Positions 8,301 to 28,606 of a stretch of 64,000 nt of DNA are shown one piece after another. Source of the stretch: Carya illinoinensis (Eukaryota; Streptophyta; Magnoliopsida; Fagales; Juglandaceae); assembly GCF_018687715.1 (NCBI RefSeq), contig NC_056752.1:44662501-44726500 (forward strand). The letters run 5' to 3'. How positions within the stretch are numbered: the stretch's first letter is position 1; each line of letters opens with the position of its first letter. The notes beneath the pieces were generated by a model. That model saw only the letters and a program-made list of their open reading frames with translations, was not told the origin of the DNA and searched no databases. The translations under genes and the position numbers were made by a program.

Positions 8301-9164
8301 AAGAGATCTGTGAGCATTGATCCCCAAACATCTCCAGTGATGAGAATTGGGGATACTGCAAACAATTTCAGTAAGGAAAAATTGGAGGCCCCTGAACGTG
8401 GAGCAACAAGTCCAGCACTAACTGTGGAGCCATTTGGATCAATCAAAGAAGTGAATGAGCAGAAACTGACAGAATCACAACTGAACAAAAATCCAGTATA
8501 TAATGAGATGGTTTTGGCTTCAAAGGAGAACTACTACCCCTCATACGATGGTAATGATGAACAGATTGACGTGTACGTGAAATGGGAGGCTTCCAAGGAA
8601 AATCCTGGCATTTTCATTACCACCCTGAAGGTTGTAAAGGATGCAAGCCTTGCTGACCTGAGGAAGTTGATTGAAATCTATATTGGTGCAGACAATCAAG
8701 CATTCACTTTTCTTCTGCTTGGGGTATGTTAAATTTAGCTCAGCTTATTATTAGAGGAATTCGTTTTTCTTAAAATCATTTTAAATTGGATTACTCACAG
8801 GATGTAGTTATACTACTCTCTGCGGGATTTGTTCTTTCAAGCGAAATTATTCTGCAATGTTACTATAATGTTTTGGATGAATACACAGGACCCCACTGCA
8901 GCTCCCGTTCCAAGAGAAAAGGAAGGATTGATACAGGCCATCAAACTTCCTCTTTGCAACAACCAGGCGAATGGCCACTTAGCTTGCTTGAGATCAGCAA
9001 AGGGAATGCAATGCCCTAGTCATCTTCCACCAAGTCCGCTCCCATTGAGGCCACTGGAAAATAAACAGTCATTCACCCCAAATTCCTGCTGCTTGCAGCC
9101 CGGTGATAGTTTATCACCAAACTACACTTCTACCCCCTATATTACTGTTCGAAGGCATCTGTAA
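5310..9164 (+). CDS. KIN10C: Kinesin-like protein, KIN-10 family (KIN-10C type)
   Basis: Six exons: 5310-5945, 6496-6651, 6719-6826, 6927-7037, 7125-8723 and 8889-9164, all phase 0, giving 961 residues. The motor domain spans about residues 53-380. It has the P-loop GPTGSGKS (132-139), switch I NERSSRSH (255-262) and switch II DMAGSE (280-285, normally DLAGSE). A charged coiled coil follows at about 400-525, then an acidic linker and a C-terminal region that is part of the duplicated segment at 18.2 kb. Kinesins of this type move on microtubules using ATP, and plant KIN-10 members are linked to dividing cells. The ATG at 5310 was chosen because the longer frame starts at TTG. It looks intact. 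An MSA-like element lies upstream. Subfamily assignment rests on remembered resemblance, so KIN-10C rather than another KIN-10 is moderately sure. Confidence 0.88.
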
Positions 9165-10983
9165 TCTTTTTTGACTGGGCTGCATCATACTTCTGTATTG
9201 AAAATATACTACTACACAGTATTTTAATATTTGTGGCGCAGTGTGTTTATAGTTGGATGTTCTTTTTCCAATCTTGGTGCCTCCTTTCTGCCACTACCTT
9301 TGAAGTTTGAACTCTTGCTTTCAATTTGATATTCTTAAAAGAACTCCCAGTTATAGCTTATTGTCCAACTAAATCCATCCTTGGAAGAATGAAAAGTCGT
9401 CCCAAGTCAGATTCTTCCTTCCATTAATAATTACTGATAAAATCACAACTCTTTCTATAATTATTTTACAAGTGAAAGATTATAAAGATGATGATACAAA
9501 ACCTGAAATTCAGATCAAATGAAAAACTCAAGTTTCTCAAAAAAATAATATTTTAAACGAAATGACGTTACCACACTCTGTTGGTGTGTTGTTGCATTAT
9601 TCTCCCTGACACATTACAACGATTTTATAGCTTTATTTTTTTTAATAATGTTACTTACAGTCATTTTTACATATTTTTTATATATTTTATTAATGTGATT
9701 GATTGTATTAATTTTTTTAATACATAACTAATCACATCAATGAAGTGCGTAAAAGAATTTACAAAATTACTACATATAAAATTTTTATTATTTTTACTTT
9801 TATTCCTTAGTAGCCTTATTTTCCTTTTAAAATAAGAATAAATCTTCTCTCACCGAAAAGTTGGATCGCATGATTTTTTTTAATTTTTTTAGTAATTAAA
9901 GAAGATTTTTTTAATAATATTATATTTTTTCTAAAAAAAGCATTTAAAGATATAAAAAAGTGAATAAAAAAATCAGAAATAAAAATTGCCTTTATCGGAA
10001 CCCATCTCCCTTTCTTGGGAACAAGCATTTGCTTTTAAGTTGTTATAAAGTAGGAATTCTATCGTATTTTTAAGGTAACGATGCCTTTATCTCTTATTTA
10101 TTACTGTTTTATTATTTATTTATTTATTTATTTATTGTTATTTGAATATGGATTAGAAATCTTAGACCATTACATTCTTACATGATTTAGAAAAAAATAT
10201 ATTCAATCAACTAATATAATTATATAATTAAAAATAAATTTAATTTTATAAATATTGACATTCTTTTACTCTTTGAATTAATTTTTAAAAGTTAAATTCG
10301 TTTTTAATTAAATTACATGATTAAATTCGTTTTTTTTAAGGCATAATTTCCTTGTAAAATATTTAGAAGTATCGCACACAGATCACTTGTTATTATTGAC
10401 TGATTACGTTAAGTGGAACTCATGTTTTGTTTACTAGATTGGATAATTGGGTACTTAATTGTTCTAATAATCATTGAATAATTAATCCTAGTTGTCCCGA
10501 GGATGGGTGTCAATATACAATATATTTATTTTGGGCCATATACCACAGAGATTAAGTAAGTGTTTTAAAATTCTGATGTTATTTAAATAAAAATCTGTTT
10601 TCCGGTTTGAAAAATTGAACTCATATCACACGACCATTCAATTGTTCTTGCAGGTTTATACATATTACTGCAGAAGCATATTCTCATTTGACTGTGAGCT
10701 GTCATCTTCTTCAAGTATATTAATTAGCAGAGCTTTACCGTTTCAATATTAATTCTTCTCATTCTTGGTTTATAAGTAAAGCTTTAATGGTATGCCACTT
10801 GTGATGTTGTGATCCATTATATGTGAAACTTATTCTCATTTATTTTGTTGGGACTGCTATATTTAGCTATTAATGAAATGTTGGAATTGATATGATTTTC
10901 TTCACACATTGAAACACATACTGAAATTCTTGGTATTGCCTCTCTTCTATTTGACCTGATTGTTATTTTGGTTCATGTTAGAA
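9165..10983. other. AT-rich intergenic region
   Basis: Kinesin 3' UTR followed by very AT-rich DNA without a credible gene. It contains a MITE-like inverted repeat (about 9643-9790) and a (TTTA)n microsatellite near 10110-10137. The last few hundred bases are presumably the leader of the GRF-finger gene. Confidence 0.6.
9643..9790. repeat. MITE-like inverted repeat
   Basis: The left arm (ttacttacagtcatttttac) and the reverse complement of the right arm near 9750-9790 are imperfectly alike. The centre carries 'aatgtgattgattg' and its inverted counterpart 'taatcacatcaatg'. The same core (aatgtgattgg) occurs in the clearer element at 31197-31347, so both may belong to one family. Confidence 0.45.
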
Positions 10984-11515
10984 ATGTCGTCATCATCATC
11001 ATCATCAATGTCTTTTTCTTCTTTTGCTAAACATACCTCAAGTCAACCATCGTACTTCTGTGAGGTCAAACCCACATTGAAGTACTTAATTATTGCAAAA
11101 AATCTTAGACGAGACTTCTTAGGGTGTCCAAACTACAACATAGAGGTAATGGATAGCTCATACTTTAGCCGTACATTAATAATTTCTATTAGCATTCATT
11201 AATATTTTGAATTTGTATGCTCAGGGATTACCATTTTGCAAGTATTTCAAATTGGCAGATAGTAATCAAGTAATTGAGCTCCAACTTCGAGAAAGAATTG
11301 ATGAACTTCTACGGAAGGAGAAAGATCTCGAGAAGATAGTCGAGCTTCTCGAAAAGAGGGAAATTGACATTCGCAAGATAGTGGATCAGCTCGAGAAGGA
11401 GTTAGGGCGTCACGCACAACTTGCTGAAAGGAAGCGTTTAGCGTCACTAAAGCGAATGTATTGGGGTGCTGCATTAGTACTCTGTTTTCTTTTTGGACGT
11501 TGGCTTTTGTTTTGA
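10984..11515 (+). CDS. Small GRF-type zinc-finger protein with coiled coil and C-terminal membrane anchor (At4g04775-like)
   Basis: Two exons, 10984-11145 and 11225-11515, joined in phase 0 across a 79-base intron, give 150 residues. A Ser-rich start is followed by a GRF-like finger at about residues 21-66: a Cys in YFCEVK, then RRDFLGCPNY, then PFCKYF. It lacks the first Cys of the usual CxC pair and the final Trp. Residues about 73-130 form a charged coiled coil with the repeat-like KDLEKIVELLEKREIDIRKI. The protein ends in a hydrophobic segment, YWGAALVLCFLFGRWLLF, likely a tail anchor. This architecture is common in large plant families of uncharacterised proteins named after At4g04775; the function is unknown and nucleic-acid binding is only assumed from the GRF fold. 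Such genes are often multicopy and near MULE-type DNA, as here. Whether it is expressed cannot be seen. Confidence 0.65.
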
Positions 11516-13290
11516 ACTCCAGACTTTATGTATTTTGATGTTTGAATTTATGGACGTTGGTTGCTGCATTATTTTGGCTCTTGAATATTTGTAGGCTCTT
11601 ATACTCTAGACTTGGAAGGAGTCTAGAGAAGTGAATTAGTTTGTAATTATTCGCTGAAGGTGTTTGGAGAAGTTGGTGTGAACGTAATATTTGTACATTA
11701 TTGAATTTTAGAGTTGATTAGCCTTCTGAAAGTTTCCATTGGTCCTGTAATGTTAATACTTTATGAGATGCAGCTGAAAGTAATCATTTTGAAGTAGTAA
11801 GTTGGGTTTGGAATATCCAGATTGGTGTGAATGTAATTGACTGTAAATTCTTGAACTTTCAGCTTGATTAGCCTTTTGATTACTTTCAGGGATGGGAGTG
11901 ACATATTTTATGATATGCAGCTTAATGGTATAAACCATGCCCAACTGGCCGAATTAATTGACACGCAATTAACAGACCAACTCAAACCTGATTGTTTGAT
12001 TACAACAACAATAACATTTACGCATACACCATCCTTAACTCTCATCTAAGTCAAACACAGCTGGGCATATAAATTGTACTCCATACTTCGTATTCTAAAT
12101 ACAACACAACATTGATTGGGGAATTACGTACATCTGCCGTTAATACAATCTTGGTACAAACTTCTAATGTCATTACAATCATTCCAAGTCATTCCAAAAA
12201 TGGCTTAAAGCTTTTAATCCATGACACGCAAGTCATCAACACCTTTCAAGTTTCTTTACAATATATCAACATAACCACAAAAAATCAAAATGACTGCCAT
12301 AATAATTGTTGTATATATCAGACCAAAGTCATATATATAGCCATAAATTCAAGAACCTGATACATATTTAAAATCCTCAAAACTTGTAACTCCCACCTGT
12401 ACGTGACTTTGGAAATACAAGAACCTCAAAACTGCTCCAAACATACAGAATTATAGCATCAGTTTCCATTGGTCCTATCAAGTCAATGCCAAATGAGACT
12501 GTCATTAAAAAGTAGTATATTAAATTCATTACTTTCCATTTTATTAAATATATATATGTTTATTTATTTTAAATGGGATTTATCTCAACTACCAAAACTG
12601 TCAATCTACACCCTAGACTACCAAATTTTGGTCAGTTGCACCCTTGACTGACAATTTTGGTAGTTTATTATGCAAATTTAAAACTCTATTGTCTTCTTTA
12701 TATGTCATCTTCAAACTACTCAAGGGCTATGTAAAACAAATGTAATTGACATAAATATTGAAGTAAAAGGAGAAGAAGAAGAAGAAGAAGAATATTATAA
12801 AATACCAACCAAAAATTCTTCTCAATATCATTGTTGTAGTTGTGATCCATCAAAATCAACATGCACCTGTTGTAATCCGTCCAATCCAAATTGCATCTGT
12901 AAAAAATAATAACTAGTGTATTAATATGATGTCGACAAATGTCATTAAAATAGCGATAAACTACAGGGATGCACTTACACTCTGTTGATTTTGAATTACT
13001 GTTTATGGTGCTTGGGTTCCACTAATGTCATATGCTAGTATGCTACCTGGAATAGCCTGATGATAAAATTTCGTAAAAAACACAACAACAAATGAAATAG
13101 TCAAATATAAATAATAACTTATTTATTTTATCTGCAAGTGTCCAACATTGGAGACGTTCAAATCGAAGGGGCAAAATAACCTCCTGCAAGTGTCCATGAC
13201 TGGTATATCCTCTCCATCTCGCTAATAAAATATGGAAAAATTTGTCAGGTATTTGGAATTGGGATAAACCATGCAAGAAGTTAATATTAC
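11516..13290. other. Intergenic region downstream of the GRF-finger gene
   Basis: No gene recognised. Two similar segments, about 11673-11730 and 11820-11882, share phrases such as 'ttggtgtgaa' and 'gattagcctt', a local duplication in the 3' flank. A (GAA)n run lies near 12770-12790. Around 12590-12700 is a copy of the dispersed 'ctaccaaaactgtcaat' repeat also seen at 3.8 kb and 37.7 kb. Short open frames here show no family signature. Confidence 0.5.
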
Positions 13291-15976
13291 TTAAATGCAC
13301 CTATTTGCGTTTTCCCTTTCCTTGTGCTTTCTTCGTCTTCTCTTAACTTTTCTCAGGTATTTCTCCATCCTAGATGCTCTCCTTAGATATGGGGGTCTGC
13401 CTTTCCCTCGAACTATCTTTGGACTGAGAACTTGCGTTGAACTACTAGTTGTATAGCTGCAGTTTCCTTTGTTGTGCCACCAACATTTAAACAATTTCTG
13501 GTTAGAGATGGGGGTTCTTGGTTCTCAGAATACAGGTCAATCATTACATACAACTTAGTTGTTGCATCCTCAGTATGCTTTTTCGAACCTGCCACACAAT
13601 TAATCATTTTATAACAAATATTCAACAAACTCGAATATCTATTAGCATCTTCCCACACCTCGCCTGCGTCATAGCTATTGTTAATTAACGTGTATCTTCT
13701 TTTAATGTCCTTCCTTTATCGATCCAAAATGTACTACTGTGACATTGTCTTAATCACATTACATTTGAACATGGCGAAGATGTGCTAGCATAATATCCCT
13801 CTCAGTTCAAATAAACCATAAGAACACTTGGCGACTACATCTTCCTCATTAAAATCTACTGAGTATGTCACCAGTTTCATAAAATCTTCGACACGAGCTT
13901 CATCTTCTACCATATAAGTCTTAATTGTACCCTCTCTTCTATGTAAAACTGGGTCCAAGTCGATAATGCTGGTAAGCTGGATCTGAACTTCCCTGAATTT
14001 AACATTTGTATACAAATCTTGATATCTTTTTTCAATTGGCGCTCTAGAGATGCAAGGAATTGTGAGATAAAATGAGTGGAAGTCAGCGACATTTTCGTTC
14101 TCAAATTTCTTTTTGAGGGCATTATCGTACTGATCGACAAACTCTTTCAAGTTTGTCTTAGCATGAACGTAACCATAAAAAAATGCATTCATGCTCCCGC
14201 TCCGCTGCGTCGTACTCATCCCAGCCCAAAAAATTTCTTTCAAGAAGGCCAGTACCCAATAGGCATGCTCAGTGTATAAACTCTGCAACCAGACATTATC
14301 ATGCAAGTTATACGTGCTGATCATCTCATCCCAACATTTTTCAAACTCTTCCAGCTTTTGGGTGTCATAAACACATTTCATCAGTGCAGTTTTCATTCTA
14401 CTTTTGTAGGAACCATAGCATCCAAGCTTTTTTGGGACTTTCTTTAGGATATGTCATAGGCAAAATCTATGTCGGCTTTCTGAAAAAACAATTGCAATTG
14501 CATTTTTCATGGCTCTATCTTGGTCAGTGATAATAGCCTTCGGCGTGACACCATCCATACACTACAACCAAGTCTAGAATAACCACACGAAAGTCTCAGC
14601 ATCCTTAGATGAAATCAAGCTAGCTCCCAATAAAATTGACTGCCCATGGTGGTTTACACCAACAAATGGTGCAAAGGGCATCCCATATCGGTTCGTCAAG
14701 TATGTGGTGTCGAAGGTTACCACATCACCGAAATATTGGTAGGCAGCTCTATTACGGGGATCTGCCCAAAATACATTCTTTAGCCTCCCGTCATCATCCA
14801 GGTCCATCAGTGCAAAAAATCCCAAATTTTTGTACTGCATCCGTAAAAAGTAGTCTCGAAGTGCTCTAACACCACCTGCACCCAATCGTAGATGTCTAGC
14901 CTTATTGATGTAGTTACGACAATCTTTTTCCAAAAACGGGAGGTTCTCAAATCCACCCGCGCCTACAACCAGAGATCTGAAACTCTTGTTCATTTGGATG
15001 CCAGCCAAATTATTTGTATCTAAAACTCTTTTGATAGATTCACTCACTTCTCTATGACATTGAAAGAAGCGAGATTTCTTTGGACTAAGGCCATGGTTGT
15101 GGATATTGTGAACTGTAGTTAGCCTAAACTTTCCATCATCAGTTTTTAAGGCATTTATTTTGGCCTTACACTTCGTCTTTCCCATCGGACGTGGGTTGGA
15201 GACATTCAAGATTCTATTCCGAGCCTTCTCACCACGGGCATAGGCAAGGGTGACATATCTAACAGTTTCATCCTCTCCCCTCTCACTTCTTTTAGTCATC
15301 ACCCCAAACCCGCATTTCTTACCATATTCTTTATAATAACTCATTAAATCTTTTAGGGAATTAAACTCCATCCCTGATTTTGGCTCATCATCACCATCCA
15401 TTTGTATCTTCTTAGATGTTTTTGCACTGCCAGACTCAGTTTCTTGTCCATTTGGTCTATCAGAATTAATTTCTTCGACTCTAGAAGATGTACATGGCGA
15501 TTCGGTTTCCTCCTCAACAACATATCTATTATCCTCTGTACCCTGAAATCTGCTTGTAACGGAGCTTGTATCGATGTTCAACAACTGGCCTTCTATGCCA
15601 TGTTGAAATGGATAACTAACATTCTGGCAAAAAGAAAAAACAAACGCAATTAAACTCTTGACACAAACCAACTTATTAAAATTAAACGGAAAACATGATA
15701 CCCCCACCTGTAGGTTGCTTGGATATTGGTTGGCAGCGAGAAAAGCCGATGACCATGCAGGCACTGGTCCATAGTAACCGTGAATTGGTATGTTTGGAGA
15801 AGTTGATGGTATGTCCTAAAATGAAATACTTTCAAATAGTTGATGTATTTTGAAAATAAATATCAACTAATCTCTACTCTAATGTTATTGATATATTAAA
15901 TAAAATAACATACCGCGGATTGGGGATTTGAGCTAGATGATCTTAGCGTGCTAGGATGTTCTTTTCCTTTTTTCAT
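13291..15976 (-). pseudogene. Decayed FAR1-related sequence (FHY3/FAR1, MULE-transposase-derived)
   Basis: Minus-strand exons can be followed from an ATG at 15976: 15914-15976, 15708-15815 and one long exon from 15623 downward. The long exon encodes a FAR1 DNA-binding region (SLKDLMSYYKEYGKKCGFGV, then a Cys/His pattern ending HNIHNHGL), a MULE transposase core (VVTFDTTYLTNRYGMPFAPF) and a SWIM-like end (ELRGILC). The frame then holds several stops: TAG at 14574, TAG 12 bases on, and TGA replacing the Trp expected in a 'CLWHIL' context near 14460. A further TAG occurs right after the SWIM Cys at 13785, with more stops near 13700-13735. A frameshift near 13420 moves the basic tail (GRPPYLRRASRMEKYLRKVK) to another frame ending at 13291. 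Living family members are nuclear transcription factors of light signalling. This copy is almost certainly dead; whether it was a host gene or a mobile element is unresolved. Confidence 0.85.
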
Positions 15977-16860
15977 GCTGAAAGGAAGATAATGCAGCTT
16001 GTCAATAGCAATATTGTATAACTAAAACCACATTAAAATCTACGAACTAGTACAATGGATCTCATTTAAAATAAATGTTTAATATGTCAGACATTTTGGA
16101 CCACCAATCACCAATCCATTAGCACCAACTTCTGGGGGTATAGAATTTGGTTATTTACCACAAAAATATAAAAGACATGCTCGATACTTGGTAGTTGATG
16201 GTACATGCTCGATACTTGGGATTCAATCCCAACCCAGGAATAAGTTTAATTAGACCCCATAAATGGGAACAAACTGTCAGAATACTAAATTGCCTATATT
16301 TCTTTCCAAAGGGTCAAAAATAATAGGTTAGATGATCATAAAAGCATTGAAGGAAGGAGTGATACCGTGGGGTCGTGAAATTCAATTAAGATGTTGTCCA
16401 TGGGCATTTTCATTCTATTAGTTATCGCCAAATTGTAACCAGACCCAGCATTCTTAATTGTATAACTAACAACATAAAAGACATTGATAGAATACTCATT
16501 CAAACAATCTGTTACCTTAAGATCCACATCCCACATAGCAACAAGAAAATGTGTAGAAACTAATGGGAACAAGAAGTTGACTAGATGTGGACTCAAACCA
16601 TTCAGGGATGTAAAGGGAAAATAAAATATTACACAACATGATTAGACAAAAATGATGCTTTTCAACTCTGAAAATGCCTTAAAGATGATCCATTTTGCCT
16701 TTTTAATTCATTTTGCAAGTAGAATAAGAACAAGAACAACTTCCAAATAATAGAATGTTTAAAGAACAACAGAAAATCAAGGTGTGGAAGAGAAAGAAAT
16801 ACATCTAAGTCAACCGTGGCAATGGAAGAAGCAGAGCAGAAATCGAGTCCAACCCACATC
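15977..16860. other. 5' flank of the FAR1-related pseudogene
   Basis: No gene is supported. Short open frames on both strands show no family signature. Around 16190-16230 lies a sequence resembling a Pol III B box (gattcaatcc), which might be an old SINE fragment, but no A box or tail could be assigned. Confidence 0.4.
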
Positions 16861-17165
16861 GTTCGGCGGCTAAAATCTGGGATGTGTGAGAATGGTGTGT
16901 AACCTCAACAGTACGTTCCGTCCACGGCAGCGACCACAGACACAGACGGAATCACAGAGAGAGAGAGTTTCAGAGCTCGGCTAGCAATGGGTTCAGCTCG
17001 GTCGTTCTCCACGTCATTCGATGGCTAAAATTTGGAAACTGTGAGAATGACGTGTTACAGCAATAGTACGTTCCGTCCACAACAGCGACAATAGAAACAA
17101 ACGGAATCAAAGAGAGGGAGTTTCAGAGCTCGATGGCAATGGGGTCAGCTCGCTCGGTTCTGGGT
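16861..17165. repeat. Tandem duplication, about 155-bp period
   Basis: Two adjacent diverged copies (about 16861-17015 and 17016-17165) share the phrases 'ggctaaaat', 'agtacgttccgtccac', 'cggaatca', 'gtttcagagctcg' and 'gtcagctcg' in the same order. They lie in the presumed leader of the FAR1-related pseudogene. The duplicates differ at many positions, so the event is not recent. Confidence 0.8.
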
Positions 17166-17308
17166 CTGAGGTTTCCCTCCCATTTTCCCGCATATTTCAA
17201 TCGGGTTCTTTTTTTTTTAATTTATTATTATTTTAAATGACGTGGTACTGCCACATCAGATGGTTTCGCGCCAGTTACACACTGGTGGTTGCAAATAGAA
17301 GAACTGTT

Positions 17309-17525
17309 TGTAGATATGGATATACTACCATTCGAATTTTGAAGAGGCATCCATGGACTTTGAATGTTGTTGGATTTATCGTTTTGGACATTCCATTCCA
17401 TAATGCTTCTTCCTATTTCCTGGATGAGAAAGCCATGAATATTTTGGTTGCCGATCCATCATTAACCCTTAAAACTCTAGCCACTAGCGTGAGAAGGAAA
17501 CCAAATATCTAAAGAAGAATATAAT
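17309..17525 (-). repeat. Copy 1 of the RIC gene 3' flank
   Basis: From 'gatatggatatac' onward this segment matches the region just downstream of the RIC stop codon (about 28609-28805). Shared phrases include 'ggcatccatggactttgaat' (ggcatccacagaatttgaat at 28.6 kb), 'ccgatccatcattaaccc' and 'actagcgtgagaaggaaacc'. It is repeated again at 17880-18065. It is non-coding and part of the composite block. Confidence 0.8.
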
Positions 17526-17539
17526 GACAATTACAAAAG

Positions 17540-17800
17540 AAAAAAAAAACAGCAGTTTTTCATGTGCTTCCCTTTTATATTGGTCAACGTTTCAGAAAGT
17601 TTCTGGAATTCGAGTAACGTTTTTATTACAGCTCTAAAAAGTATCTCCAGTTGGAAAAGCTCCTCAGTCTTTTGAGCCTCTGCAGTGTCGATATCATTCG
17701 TATAGGTATGGACATCAGCTCTCTCTTCTTTGATTTCCCGCCGCATGCAGCTTGAAAGGAACTTCTGAATTTGTAGGTGTTGATTTTTTGTGTCTTTTTG
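17540..17800 (-). pseudogene. Unidentified coding fragment, copy A
   Basis: The minus strand reads open from about 17800 to 17531 with a protein-like sequence: QKFLSSCMRREIKEERADV, then EAQKTEELFQLEILFRAV, then LLEFQKLSETLTNIKG. A near-identical copy lies at 28370-28606 beside the RIC gene, and that copy has a frameshift in the middle. The charged, Leu-rich helical sequence suggests a coiled coil. I do not recognise the parent gene. It may be one or two exons of a gene carried along with the RIC 3' flank, so it is treated as a fragment. Confidence 0.5.
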
Positions 17801-17802
17801 TA

Positions 17803-17869
17803 GTCCCACACCGGTGGGAAATATGAAAGAAGCAGATTTTTGAGATTATAAATAAGAGGCTTAGCCTCT
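17803..17869 (+). promoter_or_regulatory. snRNA-type promoter pair (USE plus TATA) with short hairpin
   Basis: GTCCCACACCG at 17803-17813 matches the plant snRNA upstream sequence element RTCCCACATCG with one change. TATAAATA follows at 17847-17854, 33 bases after the USE, the spacing reported for Pol II-transcribed plant snRNA genes (Pol III types use about 23-24). Immediately after is a perfect small hairpin, AGAGGC-TTA-GCCTCT at 17855-17869. I see no U snRNA sequence downstream, so this is a promoter-like motif without an identified RNA. Confidence 0.45.
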
Positions 17870-17879
17870 CAGTTTAAGT

Positions 17880-18240
17880 GCATCCATGGACTTTGAATGT
17901 TGTTGGATTTATCGTTTTGGACATTCCATTCCATAATGCTTCTTCCTATTTCCTGGATGAGAAAGCCATGAATCTTTCGACTGCCGATCCATCATTAACC
18001 CTTAAAACTCTAGCTACTAGCGTGAGAAGGAAACCAAATATCTAAAGAAGAATATAATGACAAATAAGATCATTTGAGTCACATCTTCAACTAGAAGATC
18101 GGGTTAAAGCCTCAAACTTACACAAATCACACGTTCCCTCTTGATTTCTCATCAAACCCACCACTCTTCCAAAATCTAATTTAGGCATTTCTGAATGTTC
18201 TTCAGTCTTTCACAGATCTAGATCCGGATCTCATGTCTGT
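17880..18240 (-). pseudogene. Copy 2 of the RIC gene 3' end
   Basis: This segment matches about 28621-28990, including the RIC 3' flank and the last coding bases up to and past the stop (Gly-Ser-Gly-Ser region). Phrases in common include 'ggacattccattccataatg', 'ctagaagatc' and 'ttctgaatgttctt'. It breaks off at about 18240, where kinesin sequence in the opposite coding direction begins. It is a DNA-level copy with scattered substitutions and cannot encode a RIC protein. Confidence 0.82.
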
Positions 18241-18244
18241 AAAG

Positions 18245-19200
18245 AAGAAGTATTTGAGGAAGAAGTAGAAGGGGAGGAAGAACAGGAAGAGAGTGTTAGG
18301 TGAAGTGGACAAAGAAATCATAGAGTAGAAAGTCTGTATGGTTGAACAGTGTAGTCCTGTACACAGAGTTGAGCAGACGCCAAATCTGCATAGCAGAAGT
18401 CCAAGGGTGAAAGACTTATCTAAAGGAAAGATTAGAGGATGGGCGTATAGGCTCAAATTCAATAAGCGAACCAGAAGATGGTAAGGATTCAATCTCTTCT
18501 AGACGATTGAGAATCCAAAATATATTCACACTTTGTGGTAATCACAGGGAGCTGTCTCAACACATCAGCACCCCAGTACCTGCTAAAAAGAGATTTGGGA
18601 CCATTGATCCCCAAACATCTCCAGTGATGAGACTTGGGTATACTACAGTGAACAATTTCAGTAAGGAAAAATTGGAGGCCCCTGAACGTGGAGCAACAAG
18701 TCCAGCATTAACTGTGGAGCCATTTGAATCAATCAAAGAAGTGAATGAGCAGAAACTGACAGAATCACAACTGAACAAGAATCCAGTATATAATGAGATG
18801 GTTTTGGCTTCAAAGGAGAACTACGACCCCTCATATGTGGTAATGATGAACAGCAATACGTGAAATGGGAGGCTTCCAAGGAAAATCCTGGCATTTTCAT
18901 TACCACCTTGCTGACCTGAGGAAGTTGATTGAAATTTATCTTGGTGCAGACAATCAAGCATTCACTTTTCTTCTGCTTGGGGTATGTTAAATTTAGCTCA
19001 GCTTATTATTAGAGCAATTCCTTTTTCTTGAAATCATTTTAAATTGGATTACTCACAGGATGTAGTTACACTACTCTCTGCGGGATTTGTTCTTTCATGC
19101 GAAATGATTTTGCAATGTTACTATAATGTTTTAGATGAGTACACAGGACCTCACCGCAACTCCCGTTCCAAGAGAGAAGGAAGGATTGATACAGGCCATC
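18245..19200 (+). pseudogene. Truncated copy of the kinesin gene 3' portion
   Basis: This block parallels 7955-8945 of the kinesin gene: the second half of exon 5, the whole of its last intron (8724-8888) and the start of exon 6, stopping at 'gatacaggccatc'. Keeping the intron shows it was copied from DNA, not from mRNA. Damage includes a 2-base deletion near 18292, GAG changed to TAG near 18326, a 1-base insertion near 18418 and a 27-base deletion near 18905 relative to the parent. A stretch still reads open (18507-18863), but no motor domain is present, so no function is expected. Confidence 0.92.
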
Positions 19201-20518
19201 GCGTGTTTTTCTCTTAAAACAATTGACAAAGCATTGCCTTTTCTTTTCTTGGCAACAAAGCATTTGCTTTTTGATCAACACAATCCCACAAAGCACCGTC
19301 TTTCGGATGACCCAAAAAAAAAAAAGTCATATGGTGGACCTGTAATGATTTTTTAAAAGAAGATTTTATGAAATTAATTCTCTTTAAAATGTCTAGTTAA
19401 TGTTAAATACAGTTATATATTATTCAAGTATTGGGCATTACTTTTAAAAATACTAAAATTTAAAGTGTAATTAATAATTATTATTTTTTTGTTAGCTCTT
19501 TGAGGTGCATATTTTAGGATGAGGAATGCTACACAACTTCTTAATACTTCATACTCTATTTTTTTTTAATTTTTTAATATTTTTTTTGGATTTATTTTTT
19601 TTAAATTAATTTAATTCTTTTATTTATTATTTATATATTAAATATTTAATAAAAATAAAATAATAAAAAAATGTGGAGTGTAGAGTGTTGAGAGATTGTG
19701 AAGATTTTTTAAAAGGATTTGCTTTTGAAATCCAGTTGTTTCTCACTCGAGTTCTCAGACGATACTTTTCAACGGCGCACTTTACGAAGAGGGTGAACTA
19801 CATGGCTTTGGGATTATTCTTTATTATTATTTTAAAAGAAAAATCTTCTTATCATCTTCACACTTTATATATTATATTTATTTTAATTTATTTTATTTTT
19901 TCTATAATAAATATGTAATGTGTGGATGATAAATAGAATAATTTAATTAGTTTAATAAGAATAAATTAAAATAAAAAATAAAAAAATAAAAAATAATATT
20001 TTAATATATAAAGTGTGTGGTGTGGGATGATTTGTAGCATATCTCTATTTTAAAATATTGAAAGTAGTAAGAAGGTCAGTTTAGATAGAGGAGTATTTTC
20101 AGTATATTTTATTATTATTTTTACATAAATGTTTTTATTATTTTATACTATTATTCATTTTATTTAATATTTTACTATATTTTTTTATTATTTACAAAAT
20201 ATCTAATTCACTCTAATATTCGAACGCGGTTTAAAAATTTAAAGCATGTTACTATGTCCACAATCATGAATCCTCGCTTATCAGTCAAATTTTCTAATTT
20301 TTTAAACTTTTTAGACACTTTTAAATAATTAAAAAATACTTATTTATTTAAAAATTATTACTTAACCATTAAGTAAAAGAAAATAAAAAGGGCCTTCACT
20401 AGTCACTACCGCACGTGAATCACAATAAGCAAGCTTGTACAACTCCAGCGTAGGATTCAAGCTCTAGGTTTTTTCATCGGAACGTCTTGCACTTCTGCTT
20501 TACGTAGAATTATTTTCT
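19201..20518. other. AT-rich intergenic region with MITE-like repeats
   Basis: Extremely AT-rich DNA without a credible gene. Two inverted-repeat elements are visible (about 19515-19715 and 19848-20046). From about 20040 to 20240 is further low-complexity AT DNA. The final 100 bases, ending at the ATG at 20519, are the leader of the tandem ubiquitin-like gene. Confidence 0.55.
19848..20046. repeat. MITE-like element with long terminal inverted repeats
   Basis: The left end, 'tcatcttcacactttatata', is mirrored at the right end by 'taatatataaagtgtgtggt' followed by 'gtgggatgat'. The interior is almost pure AT. There is no coding capacity. A weaker element of similar style lies just upstream (about 19515-19715). 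Confidence 0.6.
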
Positions 20519-23500
20519 ATGGAATCTCCGACAAATGGCAGTGGCTGTTTTCCGTCGAGCTCTGTGGACTTCACCGAAGAAGAGGTCCCTATTCTTCTTC
20601 TCCAATTCTTCATTTCGTTTACCATGTGTGTCTTTCAGTTAGATTTGCTGTTTCTTATTTTTCTTACTTCTCTGTGTCTTTCTGTTAGAATCTAAAGTTT
20701 TTGAGATTCTTGAACTGCATGGATTGTTGAGAGTCGGAGGATTGGTTTTGTTGGTTTTTTTTTTTATCTACCAAAAATGCGTCTAATGTGCTGAAATGAA
20801 AAAGGCCCCTTTTTTTTGGTTCCTTTTTGTTTTCAGATGTTTTGTCTTGCTAGAAAACATAGTAAAGAGAAGAAACTGTGTGGTTGAATATAGATGTTTT
20901 GAAAATCAATATTTAGTAGATTTGAAGAGTCTACTTGGGAACGGAGATTTTAATTTATATTTATTTGGTAGAGATTTTCAGTTGTGTTTTCCATTATATC
21001 ATTAGTAGTCATTGTCCTTGTTAGAGTAGTGCGAATGAAGCAAAGTATGAGCAGAGGATTTTGTAATATTCTCACTGTATTGATATGTGATATTGTACAG
21101 GTATATATATACACTGTAAAGGAATCAAATAAGGAATAAAGTTTGTTATGGGTAACCGTAGATAATAACAAACTATTGTCTACGGTATTTACAAAGAATG
21201 CACACCATGTGCTTGTGATAATGCTCAGTACATATTTATCTAAGGAACATCAAGGCTATTTATTCTAATACGCCCCCTCGAGTTAAAGGGTGTGTCAACA
21301 ACATTGAGACTTGATTTAAAATGAAGAAATTTGTCAGCTACAAGAGGCTTGGTGAGTACATCGGCAATTTGATCTTGAGAACTGATGAACGAAACTTTTA
21401 ATGTATTGGCAGCAACTCTATCCCTCACAAAATGATAATCAATATCCAAATGTTTTGTTCTGGAATGGTAAACTGGATTTGCTGAAAGATATGTGGCCCC
21501 AAGGTTATCACACCATAAAATAGGAGCTTGAGATAAGGGAATACCAAGTTCACGCAAGACAGTTTGAAGCCATATCAATTCGGCTGCAGATGAGGCAACA
21601 GATTTGTACTCAGCCTCTGTTGAGGATCTGGCCACGGTGGACTGCTTTTTGGAGCTCCAAGATACCAAGTGTTGACCCAAGAAGATGCAATAAGCTCCAG
21701 TTGAGCGACGATCATCGGGACAGCCACCCCAATCAGCATCGGAGTAGGCTTGAAGGGTGAGACTCGATTTTGAGGTGAAGAAGAGGCCATGATTAATTGT
21801 AGATTTCAAGTATCTCAAAATCCTTTTTACTGCACTCCAGTGGGGTAGTTTAGGTGCATGTAAAAATTGGCAAACCTTGTTCACAGCAAAGGCAATGTCT
21901 GGTCTCGTGAATGATAAATACTGTAACCCTCCTACAATACTCCTATATAATGTAATATCTTCAAAATCAGGAGTGTCAAATTTGGACAGTTTTAAAGAGG
22001 CTGACATGGGAGAAGACATGGGCTTGGCGTGAAGCATATTACTACGGGTGAGAAGGCTTTTAAGATATTTTCGTTGGGACAACAGAATGCCATCTTGAGT
22101 GTAGTGCACTTCAATACCAAGAAAATAAGCTAGTCGGCCAAGATCTTTTACAGGGAAAGCAGTACCCAAATCATGTATTAAACCAGTAATTGCAGATGAT
22201 TTTGATGATGTGATGACAATGTCATCCACGTAAACCAGCAGATAAATATGAACATCAAGGCTATTTAGTATGAATAGAGATGGATCTGCCCTAGAAGCAA
22301 CAAAACCATAGTTAAGCAACCAAGTACTTAGCTGGGCAAACCAAGCTCGAGGAGCTTGTTTGAGGCCGTAAATTGCCTTCTGAAGCTTGCAGACGTGGTG
22401 TGGCCGAGTTGCATCAACAAAGCCTTGAGGTTGTTGCATGTAAACATCATCTGTCAAGACCCCATGTAAAAATGCATTTTCTATGTCAATTTGATGCATG
22501 AGCCATCCTCTGGAAACAGCAATTGATAACACAAGCCGAATTGTCGATGGCTTCACAACAGGACTGAAAGTGTCCTGGAAATCAATTCCAGGTTGTTGAT
22601 GATACCCCTTCGCAACCAAACGGGCTTTTCTTCGTTCAAAGGAGCCATCCGAAAGAGTTTTGGTGCGGTAGACCCATCGGCAACCCAGAACATTTTGGTG
22701 AGAATTAGATGGAACCAACGTCCAAGTGGAATTTCGAAGAAGAGCTGTATATTCAGCTTTCATTGCTTGCTGCCATTCATCAAATTTGGAGGCTTGAGAA
22801 AAGCTTGAAGGATCATCTGGAACCTGTGCAGAAATAGTTAGACAATGTCGAGTGGGATATGTAATCGTGCCATCCATAAATAGACGAGGACGGGATGAGT
22901 TGGTTTTGGATCTTGTAATGATGGGAGAACGTGGCTGAAATAAGATGCTGGAGGATGGTAATGGATTTGCTGAAGAGTTTGATAGTGGATTTGCTGAGGA
23001 GGAAGGAGGATGTGCAGGTGACAGAGTCGAGGAAGGAGAAGAAGGGCGTGAATTTGGTAAAGGTAGAATCGGGAAATGAGTTGGAAGAGATGATGGTTGG
23101 GGTGGGCCGGAACCAAGGATGGAAGGGCTTGGACTTGGGTTGATTAGTGAGGAGGACGGAATTGGGCCAAGAAGAGAGGAAGAGAAGAGAGGTAGATGAG
23201 CTGGTGGCTGAACTGGTGTTGGAGAGGATTGCATGGGCTTTGTGTGAGAAAAGGGAAAGGAATTTTCATTGAAGAGGACATCACGGGAGACATATAATTT
23301 TTGAGTTTTGAGATCCATACATTTGTAGCCTTTATGAACTGGACTATACCCAAGGAATACACAAGAGGTGGACCGAAAATTTAGTTTATGAGAATTGTAT
23401 GGCCTTAAGTTGGGCCAGCACTCACAACCGAAAATTTTGAGAAATTTGTAGTCCGGTTCACAGTTGTAAACTTTGGAGTAGGGAGATTTATTTTTAAGAG

Positions 23501-26500
23501 TAGGGGTGGGAAGCAAATTTATTAGATAAACGGCAGTTTCAAAAGCTTCAACCCAATAGTGAAAAGGAAGAGAAGCTTGGGCTAGGAGTGCAAGCCCAGT
23601 TTCAACGATATGACGGTGTTTACGTTCGACTAACCCATTTTGTTGATGAGTGTGAGGACAAGAAAAACGATGTGTAATGCCAAGTTGTTTGCATATGGAG
23701 GTGAGAGGTTTGAATTCACCACCTCCATCGGTTTGTAATGTAATTAACTTGGAATTAAACAAGTGTTCAACAAATGGTAAAAAATTGGAGAAAATACTAT
23801 GTACATCAGATTTTAACTTCATCGAAAAAAACCAAGTGAAGCGTGTATAGTAATCAACAAACGAGACATAGTATTTGTAACCATTTTTTGAAACATAGTG
23901 AGCCGGGCCCCATACATCAGCACAAATTAAATCTAGGGGCTTTGTGTAATGCTCGAATGTAGAAGAAAAAGGCAATTGATGACATTTTGCAAGAGGACAA
24001 ACTGAACAATAGAAAACTGAATCTGTGGGAAAATAAGGCAAGCATTTTGAGTGCAAAACACGAGAGACCAAGGCTAGAGATGGATGCCCAAGCCGTCTAT
24101 GCCAGTGAGCAACTGAAGTACGTTCTCCAACATGAACAGAAGGCAGTGAAGACTTGGTAGTGGGAAAGGTATAAAGGCCATCACGGGTGACTCCTGTGAG
24201 GAGGATTTTCTGTGTCGCCTTGTCCTTCACAAGAAAATGTGTGGCATGAAATTCAAAGAAACACTTGTTATCAATGCAAAATTGAAGAACAGAGACTAGA
24301 TTCTTTGTTATAGAAGGAACATAAAGTAAATTTTGAAGACGAAATGAAGAGGAATTGAAGGTGAGAGAGGAGTCACCGAAATGGTCTATTTGAAGGCCCG
24401 TACCATCACCCACTCTAATGGTCTCACTACCTGCATAAGGCTCAGAAGACATATTCAAGTTAGAGAAATCATGAGTGAGGTGATGAGTAGCAGCAGAATC
24501 GGGGTACCAAACCGATTCAAAGGAGGGGTGTTGAGCAGTGTAGTTTGCTGAAAAAATTTTGGGAGCTTCATACTGATACGAATGATTAAATCGTTGCCTA
24601 CACTGAAGAGCAACATGGCCAGTCTTTTGACAGACTTGACACACTGGACGTTGCAAGTTATACTGCTGATATTGAGGCTGTGGTGCAGAGTATTGAGAAG
24701 ACTGAGTACGTCCACCACGGTTTGTGAAATAGCCACGGCTTCGACTGCTACTACTACGTCCTTGACGTCCGCCTCGAAAAGAACTTCTTCCACGTTGATC
24801 ACGGGAGGCAGAGGTGAAATGAGCGGATGGTTCAACAGGAAAAAGTGAGGATCGATTGTGATGCGCAACACGGTTTTCATGTATAAGAAGGAGTTGGTAA
24901 AGTTCGTGAGTAGAAATAGGATCAAACCGAGTGGTAATAGAAGTTACAAATGACTCGTATGAGGGACCAAGACCATTAAGAATATAGGTGATGAGTTCTT
25001 TTTCTGAGAGAAAGGTTCCAGTTGCAGCGAGAGAGTCAGATAGCTGGCGCACCTTGCCAAAATAGTCTGAAATGTTTTGGTCACCTCTAGAGAGATTTGT
25101 GAGCTGAAAGCGCACTTGAAACTCTTTGGCTTGTGATTGAAAGGAGAACATAGAGGAAAGAGAGGTCCAAAGTTGATAGGATGTAGTGGAAGATAGAACA
25201 TGATGGAGTATGGATTCAGAGAGGGAAGAGAAAAGGACGCTGAGGACAAGTTTGTCCGTTTTGCGCCAAGTAAGAAAGGCTGGATTGATCTTAGGAGGAG
25301 CATTGGACGAGTGAGGAAGATATTCAGGTGGGGAAGGAGAAGACCCATCGACAAAGGAGAAGAGATCCTGCCCGATTAGATAAGCCGAAATCTGGACTTT
25401 CCAGAGAATGTAATTTTCAGAGGATAGTTTGGTGGTAACAATATGAGAAAATGAGGAAGTAATATTAGGAGGAGATGAAGGAGGAGGTGGTGGAGGTGGG
25501 GGAGGTGGGGGATTGGGAATTTCTTCAGCCATGGATCGAGGACGATTAGTCTGTAGCTCGTGATACCATGTTAGAGTAGTGCGAATGAAGCAAAGTATGA
25601 GCAGAGGATTTTGTAATATTCTCACTGTATTGATATGTGATATTGTACAGGTATATATATACACTGTAAAGGAATCAAATAAGGAATAAAGTTTGTTATG
25701 GGTAACCGTAGATAATAACAAACTATTGTCTACGGTATTTACAAAGAATGCACACCATGTGCTTGTGATAATGCTCAGTACATATTTATCTAAGGAACAT
25801 CAAGGCTATTTATTCTAATAGTCCTCCAAAACCCAGATGAAGTGTATTTTGTATAAAAGTGGCTCATATATGAGTTCCGAAACCATTTTGGCCAATGCGT
25901 TTTATTTTGAAACAGAGTATTTCAAAGATTTATCAATCAAATTCTAGTATTTTGGCCTTCTGTTTATACGGGCTAGCCAGGAACATTTCATATTTACTAA
26001 AAGGCTACGTGTATGATTTTACTCGGCTATTGCAAAGCAAAGGCAAAATCTGTCTGATGGAAGAGTATGCTTTATGCTCTCGGAGCGAAAGATATATAGA
26101 CCTCGAATTTCTCCCGTCTATGTGTGCCACATGATGTGTGGAGGTTCATGGAACTGAGTGGCAGATAGTTAAATCATCCCTGCCACCTGCTTTATTTTTT
26201 AGGTTATAAAAATCATGAAGTGTGTATATAGGGGAAAACCAGTTTGAGGTTAGGTTTAATATTTAGTTGACATTTTAGGAGCATGGTTAACGTCAGGTGA
26301 CATGCTATATGGTATGAACGGATTTAAGGCAGTAAATAGACGCATAACCTACTTCCACTTGAATGTATTTGGTGTTTGTTTTCTTTTTACATAAAATTCT
26401 GCTTGGATTTCTGTGTGAAATTCTGCTTGGATTTCTGTGTGATGTTATATTTTCACTTGAAGTCTCTCTATGAGCCAAATATAATTTTCATATGTTGTGT

Positions 26501-27889
26501 TGTGTCTTGTAACACATGACATAAAGCTGAAGCTAAGTTTGGCTCCCTGTTTGTCAGATACCTATTACAGAGTTGTTTTGTGTTCCTGTTAAGCTCAGAT
26601 CAACCTTCTATTCTCGTTGTCGTTCCCCCTTCACCACCCCCTCGCCACCCCTCCCCTCCCCCCCTCCCTCCTCCTCTCCAAAAATAAAAAGCGTCTTGCC
26701 ATTTTGAAGTTGCATAAAAAAGAAATAACTGCTATACAATTTTTGAGTGCTCTCAATTAATTATATTGGCTTTTGGTCACAGATAAGCTTATACTTGAAG
26801 ACAATAAATACAATATCTTTAAAAGTTAAAAGATATGAGACAATTAGCAATCTCAAATCAATGATACGCGAGAAGGCAGGCATTTCAGAGAATGTCCAGG
26901 AGCTCTTTTTTGTTGGTAATCAGCTCAAGAATGACCGGAGGCTAGTTGATTATGGTATCCCGCAAGGCTCCACCCTCCACCTTGTTCTACAGAATCTAGT
27001 TGCAATGAGAATATATGTTAAAATGCCATCAGCTCAGAAAATCATTGCAGTTGATTTAAGGACTTATGATACTATCCAAAACATCAAATCAATCATTCAA
27101 GCAAAGGAGGGGATTCAACCAGATCGGTACACTCTTATCCACAATGGAAAAGTACTTGAGGATGACAGGATCCTAGCTGCACTCAATATTCCAAATGAGT
27201 CAACCATTCATTTGATTTTTAATCCGAAAGATGTCATACCAATTTTTGTCAGAACAGTGACTGGAGAGATTTTGAAACTCGAAGTTAAAGTTTTGCATAC
27301 AGTCCATGATGTCAAGGCAATAATTGAGAGCATGACAGGTGTCCTGGTGAATGATTTGGATCTGATCTATGCAGGAAAGCGAGTCGAGGATTCCAAGACA
27401 TTGGCTTCTTATGACATTAAAGAAGAAGCCACCCTAGACATGTTTCCTGCCATGATGCAGATATTTGTTAAGACATGGACTGGGAAGACCATTACTCTTG
27501 ATGTACAAAAAGGTAATACAATCGCAGATGTCAAGGACAAGATTATTCACAAACTGAAGATTTTAGCTGATCACCTGAGTCATGTGAGCATTATATTCGC
27601 TGGAAAAAGGCTTGATGAGGGCCAAGATTTAGCAAGTTATGGCGTCCTGATGCATTCCACTCTCCACATGGTCTTTTCGCCTTCAGCAAGAATCAGTCAG
27701 ATGAAATTAGCTGACATCGGGAACCCAATACAAAACTTTACTACCATTCGCATTTTGAAGAGTATGATTGAGAAGAAGATGAAAGCTCCAGTGAAGGAAA
27801 TTTACTTTCAGGGAACAGCTTTGCGGGATGATCGTTCACTTGCATATTACAGGATTGACAGTGAGGCATCGGTAAAGGTTATTTTTTGA
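20519..27889 (+). CDS. Tandem ubiquitin-like (polyubiquitin-like) protein, five UBL domains
   Basis: Two exons, 20519-20584 and 26783-27889, both phase 0, give 390 residues. Exon 1 encodes a 22-residue acidic leader; exon 2 encodes five ubiquitin-like folds at about residues 23-95, 96-173, 174-246, 247-325 and 326-390. Ubiquitin-like signatures include IFVKTWTGKTITLDV in repeat 4, and LIYAGKRVEDSKTLASYDI and IIFAGKRLDEGQDLASYGV in repeats 3 and 4. None of the junctions has the Arg-Gly-Gly that deubiquitinases cut, and the protein ends VKVIF. It therefore should not release ubiquitin and is more likely a stable scaffold or decoy. The donor after exon 1 (GAG|gtccct) is weak but in frame. Intron 1 is 6198 bases because a copia element is inserted antisense in it; without it the intron would be about 1.4 kb. 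No close named relative is recalled. Confidence 0.8.
21019..21270 (-). repeat. 3' LTR of the copia element
   Basis: Identical by eye to 25569-25820. The polyprotein stop codon (21240-21242) lies inside this LTR, so the last 31 coding bases are LTR sequence. Confidence 0.97.
21240..25532 (-). CDS. Copia gag-pol polyprotein
   Basis: A single open frame of 1430 residues starting at the ATG at 25532; a longer frame reaching into the 5' LTR is not the likely start because it precedes the primer-binding site. In order: a proline run and UBN2-type gag, a CCHC knuckle (CQVCQKTGHVALQC, about residue 297), the aspartic protease motif DSAATHH (about 343), a GAG-pre-integrase HRRLGHPS (about 475), integrase core (DLICADVWGPA, about 531), reverse transcriptase with YVDDIVIT (about 1100) and RNase H with DADWGG (about 1262). 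The order protease-integrase-RT-RNase H is the copia arrangement. No stop or frameshift is seen, which with identical LTRs suggests a functional copy. Its product would copy the element RNA into DNA in cytoplasmic particles and integrate it in the nucleus. Confidence 0.96.
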   Translation of the reverse strand: MAEEIPNPPPPPPPPPPPSSPPNITSSFSHIVTTKLSSENYILWKVQISAYLIGQDLFSFVDGSSPSPPEYLPHSSNAPPKINPAFLTWRKTDKLVLSVLFSSLSESILHHVLSSTTSYQLWTSLSSMFSFQSQAKEFQVRFQLTNLSRGDQNISDYFGKVRQLSDSLAATGTFLSEKELITYILNGLGPSYESFVTSITTRFDPISTHELYQLLLIHENRVAHHNRSSLFPVEPSAHFTSASRDQRGRSSFRGGRQGRSSSSRSRGYFTNRGGRTQSSQYSAPQPQYQQYNLQRPVCQVCQKTGHVALQCRQRFNHSYQYEAPKIFSANYTAQHPSFESVWYPDSAATHHLTHDFSNLNMSSEPYAGSETIRVGDGTGLQIDHFGDSSLTFNSSSFRLQNLLYVPSITKNLVSVLQFCIDNKCFFEFHATHFLVKDKATQKILLTGVTRDGLYTFPTTKSSLPSVHVGERTSVAHWHRRLGHPSLALVSRVLHSKCLPYFPTDSVFYCSVCPLAKCHQLPFSSTFEHYTKPLDLICADVWGPAHYVSKNGYKYYVSFVDYYTRFTWFFSMKLKSDVHSIFSNFLPFVEHLFNSKLITLQTDGGGEFKPLTSICKQLGITHRFSCPHTHQQNGLVERKHRHIVETGLALLAQASLPFHYWVEAFETAVYLINLLPTPTLKNKSPYSKVYNCEPDYKFLKIFGCECWPNLRPYNSHKLNFRSTSCVFLGYSPVHKGYKCMDLKTQKLYVSRDVLFNENSFPFSHTKPMQSSPTPVQPPAHLPLFSSSLLGPIPSSSLINPSPSPSILGSGPPQPSSLPTHFPILPLPNSRPSSPSSTLSPAHPPSSSANPLSNSSANPLPSSSILFQPRSPIITRSKTNSSRPRLFMDGTITYPTRHCLTISAQVPDDPSSFSQASKFDEWQQAMKAEYTALLRNSTWTLVPSNSHQNVLGCRWVYRTKTLSDGSFERRKARLVAKGYHQQPGIDFQDTFSPVVKPSTIRLVLSIAVSRGWLMHQIDIENAFLHGVLTDDVYMQQPQGFVDATRPHHVCKLQKAIYGLKQAPRAWFAQLSTWLLNYGFVASRADPSLFILNSLDVHIYLLVYVDDIVITSSKSSAITGLIHDLGTAFPVKDLGRLAYFLGIEVHYTQDGILLSQRKYLKSLLTRSNMLHAKPMSSPMSASLKLSKFDTPDFEDITLYRSIVGGLQYLSFTRPDIAFAVNKVCQFLHAPKLPHWSAVKRILRYLKSTINHGLFFTSKSSLTLQAYSDADWGGCPDDRRSTGAYCIFLGQHLVSWSSKKQSTVARSSTEAEYKSVASSAAELIWLQTVLRELGIPLSQAPILWCDNLGATYLSANPVYHSRTKHLDIDYHFVRDRVAANTLKVSFISSQDQIADVLTKPLVADKFLHFKSSLNVVDTPFNSRGRIRINSLDVP
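25569..25820 (-). repeat. 5' LTR of the copia element
   Basis: Promoter-side LTR for minus-strand transcription, followed directly by the primer-binding site. It contains a TATA-rich stretch (gtatatatatacac) that could serve in transcription start. It matches the other LTR at every base compared. Confidence 0.96.
26394..26441. repeat. Exact 24-bp tandem duplication in intron 1
   Basis: The 24-base unit beginning 'aaattctgcttgg' occurs twice head to tail (26394-26417 and 26418-26441) without a difference. Nearby, 26620-26680 is a C/T-rich tract. Both lie in the intron of the tandem ubiquitin-like gene, downstream of the copia insertion. Confidence 0.9.
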
Positions 27890-28369
27890 AGGATGTTAGA
27901 CGTGTAATGAAATCTAAATGTGTCTGGAAAACATGAGAATAGACATGCAGTGGATTGTCTTTTAATATACCGTGTAATTCTGCAGATATAGAATATGTGA
28001 CAAAAATGTAGTTGTGAAATAGATGGAATTCATGGTTTGAAAGGCATTTTAAAGTTGGCCCAAATAGATCATGATACAGCAGGGTCATGAAAGTAAAACA
28101 TGGAGTTACCACATGGATTATTTAGAAAATGGTCTCCTTTAATTGGTAATAGAATCTTAGGGCTGTGTCCTCCCATGTGGTTTGGTTTGAAAGTATAATT
28201 TCCCTCACCTTACTACCTTATTTGTTTGGCATCGAATAAGGCATGTCTATTTCCCCTACTTAGAAACTATTTTTTATTTCTCGAGTTATCTTTATTGTTT
28301 TTATCTATAATATGTTCCTTACGAATTATTCAGAGCTGATATCAACATGCTAATTACAAAAAAAGAAAA
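27890..28369. other. 3' flank of the tandem ubiquitin-like gene
   Basis: Presumed 3' UTR followed by AT-rich DNA. No gene is visible. An open frame antisense at 27879-28112 overlaps the end of the coding exon and shows no family signature. Confidence 0.5.
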
Positions 28370-28606
28370 AGACAAAAAACAGTTTTTCATGTGCATCCCT
28401 TTTATATTGGTCAACGTTTCAGAAAGTTTCTGGAATTCGAGTAACGTTTCTATTACAGCTCTAAAAAGTATCTCCGGGTGGAAAAGCTCCTCAGTCTTTT
28501 TGAGCCTGCAGTGTCTGATATCATTCGTATAGGTATGGACAACAGCTCTCTCTTCTGTGTGTTCCCACCGCATGCAGCTTGAGAGGAACCTCTGAATTTG
28601 TAGGAT
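28370..28606 (-). pseudogene. Unidentified coding fragment, copy B
   Basis: Close copy of the fragment at 17540-17800. The minus strand encodes the same LLEFQKLSETLTNIKG end and a QRFLSSCMRW start, but indels in the middle shift the frame, so the acidic 'TAEAQKTEEL' part reads differently here. It lies directly downstream of the RIC gene on the same strand. The parent gene is unknown. Confidence 0.5.

What the first reader, a model, noticed from the sequence alone, without database searches (positions are those of the whole stretch)
17309..19200. Composite block assembled from the 3' ends of two neighbouring genes plus an unknown coding fragment
In order the block holds a RIC 3'-flank copy, an unknown coding fragment (copy A), a snRNA-type promoter motif, a second RIC 3'-end copy, and then the kinesin 3' portion in the opposite coding direction. 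The kinesin part keeps its last intron, so the copying was from DNA. The parents lie about 10 kb to each side. This resembles gene-fragment capture by a Pack-MULE or Helitron, or patchwork repair of a break. It is the strongest unexplained structure in the window.
Basis: partly seen in the sequence, partly recalled or inferred. Interest (0 to 1): 0.8.

Follow-up and report, generated by a model that had tools for sequence, protein, structure and literature searches.

The report
Relic of a local tandem duplication
In pecan, a patchwork of dead gene ends lies between the two intact genes it was copied from; it looks like the worn-down scar of an old local duplication of that stretch of chromosome, not like genes carried there by a jumping element.

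Summary
The block is real. The window is pecan (Carya illinoinensis). Block 17307-19200 consists of diverged copies of the 3' flank of a CRIB/RIC gene (parent 28352-29001) and the 3' coding part of kinesin KIN-10A (parent 7961-8942, last intron kept), all in their parents' orientation. The "unknown coding fragment" is part of the same RIC flank. At 18239-18249 the RIC end meets the kinesin start, between the two intact parents: the junction expected from a head-to-tail duplication of kinesin-3'...RIC-3'. Silent divergence of the two halves agrees (5.6% and 7.0%; roughly 18-23 million years at a published Carya rate). In 5 of the 8 species whose numbered locus tags allow comparison, KIN-10A and RIC are near neighbours, so the donors are probably old neighbours, not captured strangers. 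I found no transposon ends, except a 24-nt A/T-only inverted pair that controls reproduce. Later events: a younger internal duplication, a 16-nt insert templated from a neighbouring gene, and heavy loss. Weak point: almost nothing else of the duplicated interval survives, so patchwork break repair stays a live rival. The whole-genome search did not complete and relatives' DNA was not examined. An ordinary pseudogene relic.

The parts
5310..9164 (+). Intact parent kinesin KIN-10A gene (left)
   Evidence: Exon 7089-8732 100% identical to Carya illinoinensis CIPAW_01G181800; tblastn of the full protein covers 5310-9161 in pieces
7961..8942 (+). Stretch of the kinesin gene that is copied in the block
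   Evidence: 92% identity with 18249-19200 over 986 columns
17307..17533 (+). RIC-flank copy 1 (28597-28808) with a 16-nt insert at about 17327-17342
   Evidence: insert matches 27739-27762 (E 3e-6) with TACT and AGAG shared at its two ends
17529..17777 (+). RIC-flank piece 'copy A' (28352-28604)
   Evidence: 91% identity; no Pfam match for its reading frame or the parent's at E 0.01
17778..17879 (.). About 101 nt of unknown origin with a snRNA-promoter-like motif (17803-17813 and 17847-17854)
   Evidence: No match in the window above shuffles; motif positions; no snRNA in Rfam scan
17880..18238 (+). RIC-flank copy 2 (28623-29001)
   Evidence: 86% identity counting gaps; 97% to copy 1 over the shared 187 nt
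18239..18249 (.). Main junction: RIC end (about 29001) against kinesin start (7961); TCT(G/A) shared by both sides
   Evidence: Junction letters side by side
18249..19200 (+). Dead kinesin 3' fragment with last intron; stop codon and frameshifts
19245..19271 (+). Possible further remnant, matching kinesin downstream DNA 10011-10036
   Evidence: 92.6%, E 8e-5; 0 of 200 shuffles as good; best of 7 window chunks, score 42 against at most 36
26747..27889 (+). Ubiquitin-like gene, apparent template of the 16-nt insert
   Evidence: 98% to I3760_01G179000; ubiquitin domains
28352..29001 (-). 3' flank and last codons of the RIC gene, copied in the block
28971..30228 (-). Intact parent RIC gene (right)
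   Evidence: Protein 100% identical to I3843_01G174300; exons placed

Best explanation
The block is the surviving junction of an old local tandem duplication. The ancestral order was kinesin (pointing right), intervening DNA, RIC (pointing left). A segment from inside a kinesin 3' exon (7961) to the RIC 3' end (29001) was duplicated head to tail, most likely by end joining or template switching. This set a RIC 3' flank directly before a kinesin 3' fragment, between the intact kinesin and the intact RIC. The fragments decayed as pseudogenes. Later break repair made a second copy of part of the RIC flank, added a 16-nt templated filler at its left edge, replaced 18 nt by about 101 nt and, with other losses, removed nearly all the rest of the duplicated interval. 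Shown: identities, order, orientation, equal age within error, pseudogene state. Supported by a proxy: old closeness of the two genes (locus tags). Inferred: that the main duplication was one event, that the missing interval was once there, and the enzymes.
For: Order RIC-end then kinesin-start, both in parental orientation, between the parents. Silent divergence agrees: 41/587 in the RIC flank, 10/153.7 synonymous plus 3/77 intron sites in kinesin, z=0.73. Kinesin and RIC are 1-5 tag numbers apart in 5 of 8 comparable species. Possible collinear remnant just right of the kinesin copy. No homology between the two donor breakpoints beyond 13-nt chance matches and a few shared letters at the junction, as in end joining. 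At 4 of 15 changed residues the block keeps the state common in the five closest other proteins, so the copy is old.
Against: The two intervals beside the junction share no long paralogy; the best matches are A/T-rich at 60-68% or under 30 nt. tblastn finds no second copy of the ubiquitin-like gene, of RIC exons, or of the remaining kinesin end in the window. Heavy loss on both sides must be assumed. The right-edge remnant is short and could be a filler or a shared repeat. Three of 8 comparable species do not show the neighbour pair in the listed rows.
Confidence: 0.62

Rival explanations
1. Patchwork (templated) repair of one or more breaks between the genes: pieces of nearby DNA (RIC flank, ubiquitin-like gene, kinesin 3' part, kinesin downstream) were copied one after another into the break, without duplication of the whole interval.
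For: No large-scale loss has to be assumed. The 16-nt insert with 4 shared letters at both ends is like the templated insertions of theta-mediated joining in Arabidopsis (PMC10923293, passages). Insertions of 10-1000 nt from nearby, often from several places, are reported for rice (PMC7407515, passage citing Vaughn and Bennetzen).
Against: All pieces have parental orientation and the two main ones have exactly the order a tandem duplication gives. Shared against private changes show at least two events of different age (10 shared, 5 only in copy 1, 0 only in copy 2), so not one repair.
Confidence: 0.25
2. Capture of gene fragments by a Pack-MULE, Helitron or other transposon.
For: Fragments of two genes with an intron kept. 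A FAR1/MULE-domain reading frame lies at 14574-15815. A 24-nt inverted pair, 17209-17232 and 19648-19671, scored above all 100 shuffles (15 against at most 13).
Against: That pair is a run of A and T only, and 9 of 261 same-size control pairs elsewhere in the window score 15 or more. Narrow test at the block edges: 124 of 200 shuffles as good. No 8-nt or longer target duplication, no Helitron-like 3' end in the ranges tested. Donors are the immediate neighbours.
Confidence: 0.05
3. Assembly error joining unrelated DNA near 18240.
For: The junction is abrupt, and only one sequence was available here.
Against: Both sides differ from the parents by several percent with indels and a stop, and two flank copies share 10 changes against the parent; a misjoin of parent reads would not give that.
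Confidence: 0.03

Closest known systems
Segmental tandem duplication with later pseudogene decay
   Same: Head-to-tail order, parental orientation, lies between intact parents, both halves of one age
   Different: Almost only the junction survives; the rest of the duplicated interval is not recognisable
Templated insertions (filler DNA) of theta-mediated end joining in plants (PMC10923293, passages)
   Same: Short insert from nearby DNA with a few shared letters at both ends
   Different: The main pieces are 0.2-1 kb; no experiment links this locus to the enzyme
Break-repair insertions in rice (Vaughn and Bennetzen 2014, seen only as cited in PMC7407515)
   Same: Local, partly tandem, from several nearby places
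   Different: Donors here lie about 10 kb away, not within 200 bp
Pack-MULE / Helitron gene capture (features from PMC10741241, passages)
   Same: Fragments of more than one gene, intron retained
   Different: No element ends found, donors are the flanking genes

Membership tests
Segmental tandem duplication | End of one parent joined to start of the other, same orientation, between the parents | tested here: met
Segmental tandem duplication | Both halves equally old | tested here: met
   5.6% against 7.0% silent divergence, z=0.73; not rejected, with wide error
Segmental tandem duplication | Paralogy continues on both sides of the junction through the interval | tested here: inconclusive
   One 27-nt remnant on the right; no long paralogy; none by tblastn
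Segmental tandem duplication | Donors were neighbours before the event | tested here: met
   Locus-tag proxy only: 5 of 8 comparable species; no genome map seen
Templated filler insertion | Short insert copied from nearby DNA with microhomology at both ends | tested here: met
   16 nt from 27739-27762, TACT and AGAG; 0 of 200 shuffles. Only for this insert, not for the block
Pack-MULE | Terminal inverted repeats | tested here: not met
   Only an A/T-run pair; controls equal it in 9 of 261
Pack-MULE | Target site duplication | tested here: not met
   No exact repeat of 8-12 nt between 17230-17344 and 19180-19339; older diverged ones would be missed
Helitron | 3' CTRR with hairpin shortly before it | tested here: not met
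   One CTRRT in 19100-19500 (19393), no perfect stem of 5 or more
Helitron | 5' TC inserted between A and T | not tested
   Too short to be informative alone
Either transposon | Other copies in the genome with shared ends | not testable with these tools
   Whole-genome search not answered in 12 calls
Plant snRNA gene | snRNA downstream of the USE/TATA motif | tested here: not met
   Rfam scan of 17200-19300

The most novel reading that the evidence does not exclude
The space between these two convergent genes is a break-and-recopy hotspot that has been duplicated, re-duplicated and patched over some 20 million years, and it has put a snRNA-type promoter-like module in front of a RIC-flank and kinesin-3' chimera, giving a lineage-specific non-coding RNA that shares sequence with the 3' ends of both intact neighbours and could act on them.
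Probability: 0.04. Interest if true: 0.55.

Novelty: new member of a known kind. Interest (0 to 1): 0.2.

Why it matters
It shows how a tandem duplication can shrink to little more than its junction and then pass for transposon capture. Checking order, orientation and the old neighbourhood of the donors separates the two and may help to avoid false Pack-MULE or Helitron calls. Otherwise it is a dated local repair scar in a tree genome, without evidence of function.

Tried and rejected
Transposon capture: inverted repeats, target duplications and a Helitron 3' end were sought (control); nothing convincing. Recombination between flanking repeats: the two donor breakpoints share only chance-level matches up to 13 nt. 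Misassembly: disfavoured by divergence and shared changes. snRNA gene: none found. Coding function of 'copy A': no Pfam family for either reading frame at E 0.01, and its alignment to the parent has small indels that shift the frame locally. Continued paralogy of the two intervals: not found beyond the short right-edge match. Left flank 17200-17306 against 25821-28600: chance level, 134 of 200 shuffles as good. Other copies in the genome: the whole-genome search was sent 12 times and not answered. Papers: 8 searches; I saw only listings except for passages of PMC7407515, PMC6097286, PMC9845283, PMC10741241, PMC10923293 and PMC9899254. The search for KIN-10A, RIC, pecan and tandem duplication (3 of 4 terms) found 0 papers; that is no proof that the locus is undescribed.

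Full report
Identity of the window. The kinesin exon 7089-8732 is 100% identical to a Carya illinoinensis protein, CIPAW_01G181800, kinesin KIN-10A. The RIC protein is 100% identical to I3843_01G174300 and the ubiquitin-like protein 98% to I3760_01G179000, both named as the same species; the tags point to chromosome 1. Kinesin is on the plus strand, RIC on the minus strand; they are convergent and about 20 kb apart.

Observation. A self-comparison of the window and alignments confirm the pieces. In order: RIC flank 28597-28808 with a small insert; RIC flank 28352-28604; about 101 nt of other sequence; RIC flank 28623-29001; kinesin 7961-8942. Each has the orientation of its donor. The 'unknown coding fragment' is contiguous with the rest of the flank at the parent.

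Main inference. A head-to-tail duplication of 7961..29001 puts the RIC end against the kinesin start, with an intact kinesin on the left and an intact RIC on the right. That is what lies at 18239-18249. If order and the two orientations were free, the chance of this arrangement would be about 1 in 8 (my reckoning), so it favours the model without proving it.

Age. The RIC flank (copy 2 and copy A) differs from the parent at 41 of 587 aligned sites; kinesin at 10 of 153.7 synonymous and 3 of 77 intron sites; z=0.73. With the rate of 1.60e-9 per site per year that PMC9899254 gives for C. illinoinensis (passage) this is about 18-23 million years. Flank copies 1 and 2 share 10 changes against the parent; 5 are only in copy 1 and 0 only in copy 2. 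Four of the five lie within 8 nt. The internal duplication is younger, about 2-9 million years by the same rate, the range depending on whether the cluster is counted.

Polarity and decay. Of 239 kinesin codons compared, 24 differ: 9 silent, 15 changing the residue, one to a stop. At 4 of the 15 (8142, 8310, 8313, 8682) the block has the residue found in at least 4 of the five closest other proteins (P0002-P0006, of which only P0006 is named, Fagus crenata), while the intact gene has changed. The other 11 are changes in the block or unclear. Differences are 17 of 563.3 nonsynonymous sites (0.030) and 10 of 153.7 synonymous (0.065), as expected of one constrained and one dead copy.

Old neighbours. 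I compared by eye the 120 rows shown of 495 kinesin matches and the 120 of 1096 RIC matches. Eight species show numbered tags in both. In five they are 1 to 5 numbers apart with equal contig length: Salix brachista 015195/015194, Salix udensis 021605/021604, Ulmus minor 010008/010006, Corymbia H1395/H1400, and Craigia twice (36dG0076300/0076500 and 40dG0029400/0029200, one tag between if tags step by 100). In three they are not: Populus tomentosa, Fragaria, Escallonia; there the true neighbour may be outside the rows shown. Some untagged pairs also share a contig length, including short contigs of Parasponia (294,196) and Morus (353,810); others do not (Durio, Actinidia eriantha, Rhododendron vialii). 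The ubiquitin-like gene is also close: kinesin 006884 and ubiquitin 006888 in Xanthoceras, RIC 012891 and ubiquitin 012896 in Tetracentron. Tags are a proxy for position.

Edges. Left: 17307-17326 matches 28597-28617, and 17323-17346 matches 27739-27762 in the ubiquitin-like gene (E 3e-6; 0 of 200 shuffles; score 43 against at most 28 in 7 other stretches of the window). The simplest reading is a 16-nt insert copied from there, with TACT and AGAG shared at its ends, like the templated insertions described in Arabidopsis (PMC10923293, passages). Right: 19245-19271 matches 10011-10036 (E 8e-5; 0 of 200 shuffles; 42 against at most 36 in 6 other chunks). It is collinear with the kinesin copy if about 1 kb is missing; it could also be a filler or a shared repeat.

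Against the model. The intervals beside the junction share no long paralogy, and tblastn finds no second ubiquitin-like gene, RIC exon or remaining kinesin end in the window. The interior must have been lost on both sides, so the patchwork-repair rival keeps about one chance in four. A 24-nt inverted pair near the block did exceed its 100 shuffles, but it is an A/T run and 9 of 261 control pairs equal or beat it. The whole-genome search did not complete in 12 calls, and no relative's DNA was examined.

Verdict. A real but ordinary relic of local, DNA-level duplication and break repair. No convincing sign of a transposon and none of a function.

Noticed in passing
window 21019-25820: Complete, apparently young Copia retrotransposon on the minus strand: 255-nt end repeats 99.6% identical, 5-nt flanking repeat GTCCT, 1519-residue open frame with gag, integrase and reverse transcriptase domains.
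   Followed up: partly
window 13785-15815: FAR1/MULE-domain gene on the minus strand, whose two long frames are separated by 14454-14573; pseudogene or intron not decided.
   Followed up: no
window 16854-17161: Two direct copies of about 155 nt, 81% alike, just left of the block.
   Followed up: no
window 31106-31438: Long imperfect palindrome, 68% self-complementary over 333 nt, MITE-like (the label is recalled).
   Followed up: no
window 17441-17448: Four of the five differences private to RIC-flank copy 1 lie within 8 nt, as if from one multi-base event.
   Followed up: partly
window 17778-17879: 101 nt of unknown origin with a USE/TATA snRNA-promoter-like pair and a short palindrome AGAGGCTTAGCCTCT, no snRNA after it.
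   Followed up: partly
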